Origin: an uncultured Pelagibacteraceae bacterium | Lineage (GTDB): Bacteria > Pseudomonadota > Alphaproteobacteria > Pelagibacterales > Pelagibacteraceae | Reading direction: 5' to 3' | Assembly (NCBI GenBank): GCA_902633335.1 | Contig: CACPFY010000002.1 | Span: forward strand, 62,001 to 126,000 | DNA length: 64,000 nucleotides | Part shown: positions 10,765 through 14,248 of the stretch, in pieces | Layout of the letters: every line of letters begins with the position of its first letter | Position numbering within the stretch: the first letter of the stretch is position 1 | Position numbers and translations under genes: made by a program | The notes under the pieces: generated by a model | Seen by the model: only the letters and a program-made list of their open reading frames with translations | Databases searched by the model: none | What the model was told of the DNA's origin: nothing

Positions 10765-11010
10765 TTATTTTGATGCAACTTTAGAAGCCCAAAATTTATC
10801 TAATAAAAAATACCAAACTGTATTAGCTAATGGTTCAACTATTGCATCTGTTAAAGCTATCATAAATGAAACATCGGCTACAAGCATCAAGACAGTTATT
10901 GCTATTAAAAAATGTCCAATAGTGTAAACGAGTGTTCTTAAAAGTGAGCCTTTATTATTTTCGTAAATTTTTCTAGCTGCACCATGTATACCTTGTGTAA
11001 ATTCAGTCAT
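10765..11010 (-). CDS. DUF2061-family small membrane protein
   Basis: An 81-residue protein of unknown function matching the DUF2061 pattern: an R-T-L-x-Y-T-I start to a membrane helix (LLRTLVYTIGHFLIAITVLML), a second hydrophobic segment, and a conserved terminal NTVWYFLLDKFWA. Two transmembrane helices are visible. It lies one base after the katG stop in the same direction, so it is probably transcribed with katG and may share its regulation. A role in oxidative stress is only inferred from position. Confidence 0.75.
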   Translation of the reverse strand: MTEFTQGIHGAARKIYENNKGSLLRTLVYTIGHFLIAITVLMLVADVSFMIALTDAIVEPLANTVWYFLLDKFWASKVASK

Positions 11011-11011
11011 A

Positions 11012-13189
<2,178 letters not shown>

Positions 13190-13200
13190 TTAGTTCAATA

Positions 13201-13234
13201 TCTAGTTTATAATAATTCTAAACTAGAAAGTCAA
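13201..13234 (-). promoter_or_regulatory. katG promoter with embedded candidate Irr box (ICE)
   Basis: On the minus strand TTGACT (13234-13229), 17 bases and TATAAA (13211-13206) form a sigma-70-type promoter with a short leader to the katG ATG at 13183. The spacer and -10 overlap TTTATAATAATTCTAAA (13206-13222, plus strand), which matches the rhizobial iron-control element TTTAGAA-N3-TTCTAAA at all but one position. The repeat extends outward: TCTAGTTTA and TAAACTAGA give a 27-base palindrome with one mismatched pair. A protein bound here would block RNA polymerase. The irr gene is next door, so Irr control of katG is the natural inference. Confidence 0.75.
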
Positions 13235-13669: not shown

Positions 13670-13698
13670 TTGCTTACTTTATAGTTTTAAACTATTTA
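13670..13698 (+). promoter_or_regulatory. irr/fabA divergent promoter region with palindrome
   Basis: The 77-base gap between irr and fabA carries the perfect palindrome ATAGTTTTAAACTAT (13681-13695). On the plus strand it fills the spacer of a possible fabA promoter (TTGCTT, 17 bases, TATTTA). On the minus strand it lies just after a possible irr promoter (TTGATT, 16 bases, TATAAA), near the expected transcript start. Its AGTTT/AAACT half-sites echo the outer arms of the katG palindrome. It could be an Irr autoregulatory site, but it is not a canonical Irr box. Confidence 0.45.
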
Positions 13699-13741: not shown

Positions 13742-14248
13742 ATGAAGCAAAAGAATAGTTATAATTATCAAGATTTAATTGATTGTGGTAATGGTATTCT
13801 TTTTGGTGAAGGTAATGCAAAATTACCACTGCCTCCGATGCTTATGTTTGACAGAATTACAAAAATTGAAAATAGCACAGGAACTTTCAATCGAGGCTAT
13901 CTGGAAGCCGAATTAGATATTAAGGATGATCTTTGGTTTTTTAAATGTCATTTTCAAAAAGATCCGGTGATGCCAGGTTGTCTTGGTTTAGATGCAATGT
14001 GGCAATTAGTTGGTTTTTATCTTGGTTGGACAGGTGAACCCGGAAAAGGGAGAGCTTTGGGGGTAAGCACAGTTAAATTTACTGGTGAAGTTTTAAAAAA
14101 AGTTAAGATGGCCACTTATAAAATAAATATAAAAAGAATTTTAAAAAAAGAGGGTGCTGTAGTAGGATTAGCTAATGGCACATTAGATGCTGATGGAAAA
14201 GTAATCTATGTAGCAGAAAATTTGAAAGTAGGTTTGTTTAAGTCATGA
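13742..14248 (+). CDS. fabA: 3-hydroxydecanoyl-ACP dehydratase/isomerase FabA
   Basis: Introduces the cis double bond at the C10 stage of fatty-acid synthesis by dehydration and isomerisation. The 168 residues show the hot-dog fold signatures: [10 protein letters not shown] near the N terminus, the catalytic His in [30 protein letters not shown], and FTGEVLK. Its stop overlaps the fabB ATG by four bases. It heads the fabA-fabB-fabI operon, divergent from irr. Confidence 0.97.

What the first reader, a model, noticed from the sequence alone, without database searches (positions are those of the whole stretch)
13201..13234. Near-consensus Irr box (ICE) inside the katG promoter, next to irr
Seen: TTTATAATAATTCTAAA at 13206-13222, one mismatch from the rhizobial iron-control element TTTAGAA-N3-TTCTAAA, inside a 27-base palindrome with a single mismatched pair. 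It lies between a TTGACT -35 and a TATAAA -10 with 17-base spacing, upstream of katG. Known: Irr is a heme-responsive Fur-family regulator in alphaproteobacteria that binds ICE. Inferred: Irr controls a heme peroxidase here, linking iron or heme status to peroxide defence in a streamlined ocean bacterium that carries few regulators.
Basis: partly seen in the sequence, partly recalled or inferred. Interest (0 to 1): 0.75.

Follow-up and report, generated by a model that had tools for sequence, protein, structure and literature searches.

The report
Irr-type operator in SAR11 catalase promoter
A palindromic DNA switch inside the promoter of a SAR11 ocean bacterium's catalase gene is almost certainly the docking site of the neighbouring regulator Irr: relatives that keep Irr keep the site and relatives that lost Irr lost it, so one local repressor seems to run peroxide defence in many of these very abundant cells.

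Summary
Window 13201-13227 is a 27-bp palindrome with one mismatched pair, containing TTTAGAATTATTATAAA (minus strand) between TTGACT and TATAAA, 22 nt before katG and just after irr, in a Pelagibacteraceae (SAR11) genome.

Motif counts in this AT-rich window prove little; conservation does. The box is exact in 56 of 58 irr-katG promoters and in none of 22 katG promoters from genomes lacking irr, seven of which keep the fabA-katG neighbourhood. The regulator groups with alphaproteobacterial Irr, apart from Fur and PerR.

Beyond the finding: in Alphaproteobacteria the gene after irr is usually rubrerythrin, often behind an ICE. SAR11 genomes carry katG or rubrerythrin, never both (0 of 297), behind the same kind of box. 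So katG appears to have replaced another peroxidase inside an old Irr-controlled locus.

The box is half ICE, half PerR box; the fixed asymmetry coincides with the katG -10. Irr keeps all five PerR-type metal ligands and lacks the Cys-Pro heme motif. Published SAR11 data (rubrerythrin slightly up, Irr unchanged under iron limitation) argue against simple low-iron repression. Irr control of katG is well supported; the iron/heme signal is not. Peroxide-relieved repression is my best guess. No binding was measured.

The parts
13201..13227 (.). 27-bp palindrome, proposed Irr operator
   Evidence: one mismatched pair of 13; only one of this quality in the window
13206..13222 (-). box core TTTAGAATTATTATAAA: left half ICE-like, right half PerR-box-like
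   Evidence: exact in 56 of 58 irr-katG spacers of SAR11 genomes; column identity 0.967 versus 0.686 around it
13206..13211 (-). TATAAA, proposed -10 of katG, overlapping the right half of the box
   Evidence: invariant in 56 aligned spacers; transcript start not mapped
13229..13234 (-). TTGACT, proposed -35 of katG
   Evidence: TTGAC invariant in 56 aligned spacers, 15-17 nt from TATAAA
13245..13664 (-). irr, Fur-family regulator of the Irr type, 139 aa
   Evidence: best NCBIfam model IrrA 146.2 bits, cut-off 150; in one clade with alphaproteobacterial Irr, support 99/94
11012..13183 (-). katG, catalase-peroxidase, 723 aa, proposed Irr target
   Evidence: TIGR00198 1028.9 bits, cut-off 770
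10765..11010 (-). DUF2061 small membrane protein, probably co-transcribed with katG
   Evidence: PF09834 28.5 bits; starts 1 nt after the katG stop
13678..13691 (-). TTTAAAACTATAAA, degenerate remnant of the autoregulatory box upstream of irr
   Evidence: exact boxes stand here in several relatives, for example L012, L013, L017, L019; 3 nt shorter here (read)
13742..14248 (+). fabA, divergent neighbour that marks the conserved irr locus (context)
   Evidence: TIGR01749 255.7 bits, cut-off 238; next to irr in the SAR11 loci

Best explanation
The palindrome is the operator of the neighbouring Irr protein. Shown by sequence: a conserved palindrome overlapping the spacer and -10 of the katG promoter, next to an Irr gene, kept only where Irr is kept. 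Inferred: an Irr dimer sits on the box, covers the -10 and keeps RNA polymerase off; when peroxide (possibly through bound iron or heme) oxidises or unloads the metal site, Irr lets go and katG is made. katG stands in the slot that rubrerythrin holds after irr in most Alphaproteobacteria examined, so this is an old Irr-run peroxide-defence locus with a new enzyme. In this genome the box has one clear target, so Irr looks like a local repressor rather than a global iron regulator.
For: Exact box in 56/58 irr-katG spacers and 0/22 irr-less katG promoters, p about 1e-17 with shared ancestry as a caveat. Box far more conserved than its surroundings. Irr clade 99/94, Fur and PerR outside. The same box type precedes irr itself, rubrerythrin and, in the sister family, a peroxiredoxin. 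irr followed by rubrerythrin in 24 of 30 other alphaproteobacterial loci, with an ICE of at most 2 mismatches within 150 nt in 15, about 0.02 expected. katG and rubrerythrin never together in 297 genomes, and 214 of 216 irr+ genomes have one of them. All five PerR-type ligands invariant in 71 SAR11 and 32 other Irr. Irr is degraded on H2O2 exposure in Bradyrhizobium (PMC4902296) and oxidised at a PerR-like site (PMC4700492).
Against: No binding, expression or transcript-start data for this locus. The IrrA model is missed by 3.8 bits. The tree rests on 128 columns and short PerR fragments. In Rhodobacter sphaeroides purified Irr did not bind the katE promoter (PMC3413700), so catalase is not a general Irr target. 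In vitro, Bradyrhizobium Irr was not oxidised by H2O2 without heme (PMC4700492), which weakens a purely PerR-like signal. Repression rather than activation is inferred from the overlap with the -10.
Confidence: 0.7

Rival explanations
1. Irr binds the box but its signal is iron or heme, as in rhizobia: Irr represses katG when iron or heme is scarce and releases it when heme is available for the enzyme.
For: Irr of other Alphaproteobacteria senses heme, and Irr without the HRM can still bind heme (PMC3413700); the HHH cluster is invariant; some sister-family genomes have a box before an iron ABC binding protein.
Against: No Cys-Pro heme motif in 71 SAR11 Irr. Under iron limitation in Ca. P. ubique Irr protein was unchanged and rubrerythrin rose 1.57-fold instead of falling (PMC2864753). 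The only clear target in this genome is katG.
Confidence: 0.2
2. The box is bound by the housekeeping Fur of this genome, or by both Fur and Irr, as an iron-dependent operator.
For: The genome carries three Fur-family genes, and Fur-family operators are all AT-rich palindromes.
Against: Genomes that keep Fur but lack irr lack the box: Fur does not preserve it.
Confidence: 0.06
3. The palindrome is the transcription terminator of irr or a chance AT palindrome kept for promoter reasons only.
For: It lies 17 nt after the irr stop and overlaps the -10 and spacer; AT palindromes are common here.
Against: No GC stem or T-run; the same motif stands upstream of irr, rubrerythrin and a peroxiredoxin; katG promoters without irr do not keep it.
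Confidence: 0.04

Closest known systems
Irr and the iron control element (ICE) of rhizobia
   Same: Fur-family regulator of the Irr clade; operator TTTAGAA-N3-TTCTAAA in target promoters; irr beside fabA in many Alphaproteobacteria
   Different: The katG box is a hybrid with a PerR-like right half; one clear target in this genome; no Cys-Pro heme motif; iron or heme response untested
irr-ICE-rubrerythrin locus of Alphaproteobacteria, with FeS protein and DUF3501
   Same: Same locus, same regulator, operator between irr and a peroxide-defence gene
   Different: The rubrerythrin operon is replaced by katG in the window's lineage
PerR and the PerR box of Bacillus (peroxide repressor of katA and other genes)
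   Same: Local Fur-family control of a peroxide enzyme; five metal ligands conserved; right half-site ATTATAA matches
   Different: Not in the PerR clade, lacks the structural zinc cysteines; peroxide response untested
Irr of Rhodobacter sphaeroides (RSP_3179)
   Same: Irr targets there, mbfA and ccpA, serve oxidative defence; the irr mutant is more peroxide resistant (PMC3413700)
   Different: There the catalase gene katE has no Irr box and was not bound by Irr; here katG carries the box

Membership tests
Irr (regulator) | Placement in the Irr clade, apart from Fur and PerR | tested here: met
   SAR11 plus other Irr 99/94, Fur on its own branch 99/99, PerR fragments outside
Irr (regulator) | NCBIfam IrrA equivalog score over the curated cut-off | tested here: not met
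   146.2 bits against 150, best of all models; four other SAR11 Irr score 131-148. A narrow miss of a database threshold rather than of a biological feature
Irr (regulator) | HHH cluster and conserved neighbourhood with fabA | tested here: met
   HHH in 71 of 71; fabA next to irr in the SAR11 loci and in part of the wider class
Irr (regulator) | Heme-regulatory motif Cys-Pro (Bradyrhizobium type; absent in several accepted Irr) | tested here: not met
   0 of 71 SAR11 Irr; not required, since R. sphaeroides and Brucella Irr lack it (PMC3413700)
Irr (regulator) | Response to iron or heme | not testable with these tools
   Needs protein or expression work; indirect Ca. P. ubique data point away from low-iron repression
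ICE (operator) | TTTAGAA-N3-TTCTAAA with few mismatches, in a promoter, conserved | tested here: met
   One mismatch, conserved in 56 of 58
ICE (operator) | Bound by Irr | not testable with these tools
   Only co-occurrence and co-loss with irr shown
PerR (regulator) | Structural zinc site of four Cys | tested here: not met
   Cys96 and Cys99 positions are Asp and Ser; one Cys in the whole protein
PerR (regulator) | Regulatory metal ligands H37 D85 H91 H93 D104 | tested here: met
   H40 D89 H95 H97 D108, invariant in 71 SAR11 and 32 other Irr
PerR (regulator) | Placement in the PerR clade | tested here: not met
   PerR models at most 73.7 bits with cut-offs of 180-250

The most novel reading that the evidence does not exclude
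SAR11 Irr has turned from an iron/heme regulator into a nearly single-target, PerR-like peroxide repressor: it senses peroxide at the PerR-type metal site and controls whichever peroxidase (KatG or rubrerythrin) occupies the slot after irr, on a hybrid ICE/PerR box fused with the -10.
Probability: 0.35. Interest if true: 0.68.

Novelty: new variant of a known kind. Interest (0 to 1): 0.52.

Why it matters
SAR11 is among the most abundant bacteria in the sea, and peroxide removal is a service shared between marine microbes; PMC3033426 took Pelagibacter to lack catalase. Here most sampled Pelagibacteraceae carry katG, usually under a local Irr switch, others carry rubrerythrin under the same kind of switch, a few have katG beside an OxyR-like gene, and some have neither enzyme. 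That gives a testable map of which cells detoxify peroxide and on what cue. It also shows a regulator and its DNA site outlasting the enzyme they control.

Tried and rejected
Motif counting in the window alone: not significant. A wider Irr regulon in this genome: of 29 other places within 2 mismatches of the hybrid box, 27 were examined and 26 lie inside ORFs; the one left, L089, has only a 155-aa ORF of no identified family downstream. The plain ICE gave fewer genome hits than its reversed control, 68 versus 120, so weak sites cannot be told from chance. Near-matches that recur in relatives, TTTAAAATTATTATAAA and TTTACAATCATTATAAA, lie inside conserved ORFs and reflect coding conservation. 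Reading the protein as PerR or Fur: rejected. An OxyR operator at this katG: no oxyR nearby; OxyR-like genes flank katG only in irr-less L132 and L133. The Rodionov 2006 regulon paper is not in the library, so an earlier prediction of katG or rubrerythrin in an Irr regulon cannot be excluded. Structure prediction was not run; the ligand question was answered by alignment.

Full report
OBSERVATION. Taken alone they are weak evidence: in this AT-rich window ICE matches at up to 3 mismatches are no more frequent than in shuffled sequence, and a palindrome of this quality is not very rare (0.3 expected).

GENOME. The window is part of contig C2 of a 949-kb, 81% complete genome. Its irr is up to 98% identical to irr in assemblies labelled uncultured Pelagibacteraceae, that is SAR11.

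CONSERVATION. In nearly all fetched loci fabA is divergent from irr and katG follows irr in the same direction. In 56 of 58 irr-katG spacers TTTAGAAYNATTATAAA is exact; the other two have 1 and 2 mismatches. Over 56 aligned spacers the box columns average 0.967 identity, the rest of the spacer 0.686, the flanking coding ends 0.81-0.82. TTGAC is invariant and lies 15-17 nt from the TATAAA that forms the right edge of the box.

NATURAL DELETIONS. Twenty-two katG promoters from genomes without irr were read (L132-L134, L308-L314, L316-L327). None has an exact box. Seven keep the fabA-katG neighbourhood with irr cut out: there the best remnant has 1 mismatch in L134, 2 in L314 and L322, and 3 to 5 in the rest. 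The contrast 56/58 against 0/22 gives p about 1e-17; genomes share ancestry, so this overstates independence. In two irr-less genomes katG is divergent from a LysR gene whose best family is OxyR (below that model's cut-off), with two cysteines nine residues apart: another regulator for the same enzyme.

THE SLOT AFTER irr. In 30 other alphaproteobacterial loci, taken by best IrrA score and so not a random sample, rubrerythrin lies within 500 nt downstream of irr in 24, and an ICE with at most 2 mismatches lies within 150 nt of the irr end in 15, against about 0.02 expected from base-shuffled regions. The sister family in the order keeps irr, rubrerythrin, a GlpC-like FeS protein and DUF3501, and spacers there carry a perfect or near-perfect ICE. 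Among 297 Pelagibacteraceae genomes 210 have katG and 47 rubrerythrin, with no overlap; all 47 rubrerythrin genomes have irr; 214 of 216 irr+ genomes have one enzyme or the other, against 43 of 81 irr- genomes (counts made by hand from the tables, irr+ meaning E below 1e-20; many genomes are incomplete). One exception, G589, lacks katG but keeps the exact box before an aspartyl/asparaginyl hydroxylase-like gene. The simplest reading is that katG replaced rubrerythrin in place under an old Irr operator. The direction is inferred from the wider distribution of irr-rubrerythrin, not from a reconciled tree.

WHY THE BOX IS ASYMMETRIC. ICE and PerR-box half-sites differ mainly at one base. Here the left half is TTTAGAA and the right half ATTATAAA, fixed in all 56. 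Before rubrerythrin in the sister family both halves are ICE (TTTAGAATGATTCTAAA). In katG promoters the right half is also the -10 TATAAA, which would account for the fixed change. This is inference: hybrid boxes in the reverse orientation also occur before some rubrerythrin genes.

REGULATOR. IrrA is the best NCBIfam model at 146.2 bits, just under its cut-off of 150; PerR models score 73.7 or less. The tree joins SAR11 Irr with other Irr at 99/94, with Fur and PerR outside; it has few columns, and the PerR rows are fragments copied from the alignments. All five PerR metal ligands and the HHH cluster are invariant in 71 SAR11 and 32 other Irr; the CxxC zinc cysteines and the Cys-Pro heme motif are missing.

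MECHANISM. Shown: geometry, conservation, co-loss with irr. Inferred: repression by covering the -10, relieved by oxidation. From papers: Irr is degraded on H2O2 exposure (PMC4902296); it is oxidised at a PerR-like site after heme conversion, though H2O2 alone did not oxidise heme-free Irr (PMC4700492); in Rhodobacter its targets mbfA and ccpA serve oxidative defence, but katE was not bound (PMC3413700). In Ca. P. ubique under iron limitation Irr protein was unchanged and rubrerythrin RNA rose 1.57-fold (PMC2864753). G372, one contig of 1,308,759 bases with rubrerythrin at 0.39 Mb, is probably that strain (its genome length is from my memory); it has irr then rubrerythrin, an exact box before irr and two tandem near-boxes between irr and rubrerythrin. 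This weak datum points away from repression at low iron.

REGULON. In the window's genome the katG box is the only exact match, and 26 of the 27 other near matches examined lie inside ORFs. Boxes before irr are exact in several clades but degenerate in the window. In some sister-family genomes further boxes precede a peroxiredoxin and an iron ABC binding protein, so the wider regulon mixes peroxide and iron.

VERDICT. A real operator, almost certainly for Irr, in the katG promoter. The iron/heme link remains open. It is a new variant of the Irr-ICE system rather than a new kind. Offshore SAR11 genera were recently reported to share katG (PMC12636525); I found no description of its regulation in the papers I could search.

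Noticed in passing
L258-L263, position 1001-1017: TTTAGAATNATTTTAAA stands 63-68 nt upstream of a TRAP-type transporter binding protein with a twin-arginine-like leader in six SAR11 genomes (G011, G019, G029, G030, G031, G036), always intergenic; possibly a further Irr site.
   Followed up: partly
L098, L099, L100, L102, L104 (sister family), position 1501-1517: An exact hybrid box lies between divergent peroxiredoxin and metallo-beta-lactamase-fold genes, 18 nt from the peroxiredoxin start.
   Followed up: partly
L095, L276 (and, at larger distance, L275): A one-mismatch box precedes the iron(III) ABC transporter binding protein gene in sister-family genomes; 18 nt upstream in L095 and L276, 114 nt in L275.
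   Followed up: partly
L132:1200-2078, L133:2734-3615: In irr-less SAR11 genomes katG is divergent from an OxyR-like LysR regulator with two cysteines nine residues apart.
   Followed up: partly
L315:2398-3172: G589 lacks katG; the Irr box now stands before an aspartyl/asparaginyl beta-hydroxylase-like gene. A similar-looking protein follows katG in L126.
   Followed up: partly
L274:1001-1017: G038 has irr-katG away from fabA, while a perfect ICE (TTTAGAATTATTCTAAA) remains 260 nt upstream of its fabA, where irr usually lies.
   Followed up: no
window 10765-11010: A DUF2061 membrane protein starts 1 nt after the katG stop; a homologue stays at this locus in L315, where katG is gone.
   Followed up: no
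L308, L309, L325: In irr-less genomes of another genus (g5) katG follows an FTR1-family iron permease gene directly.
   Followed up: no
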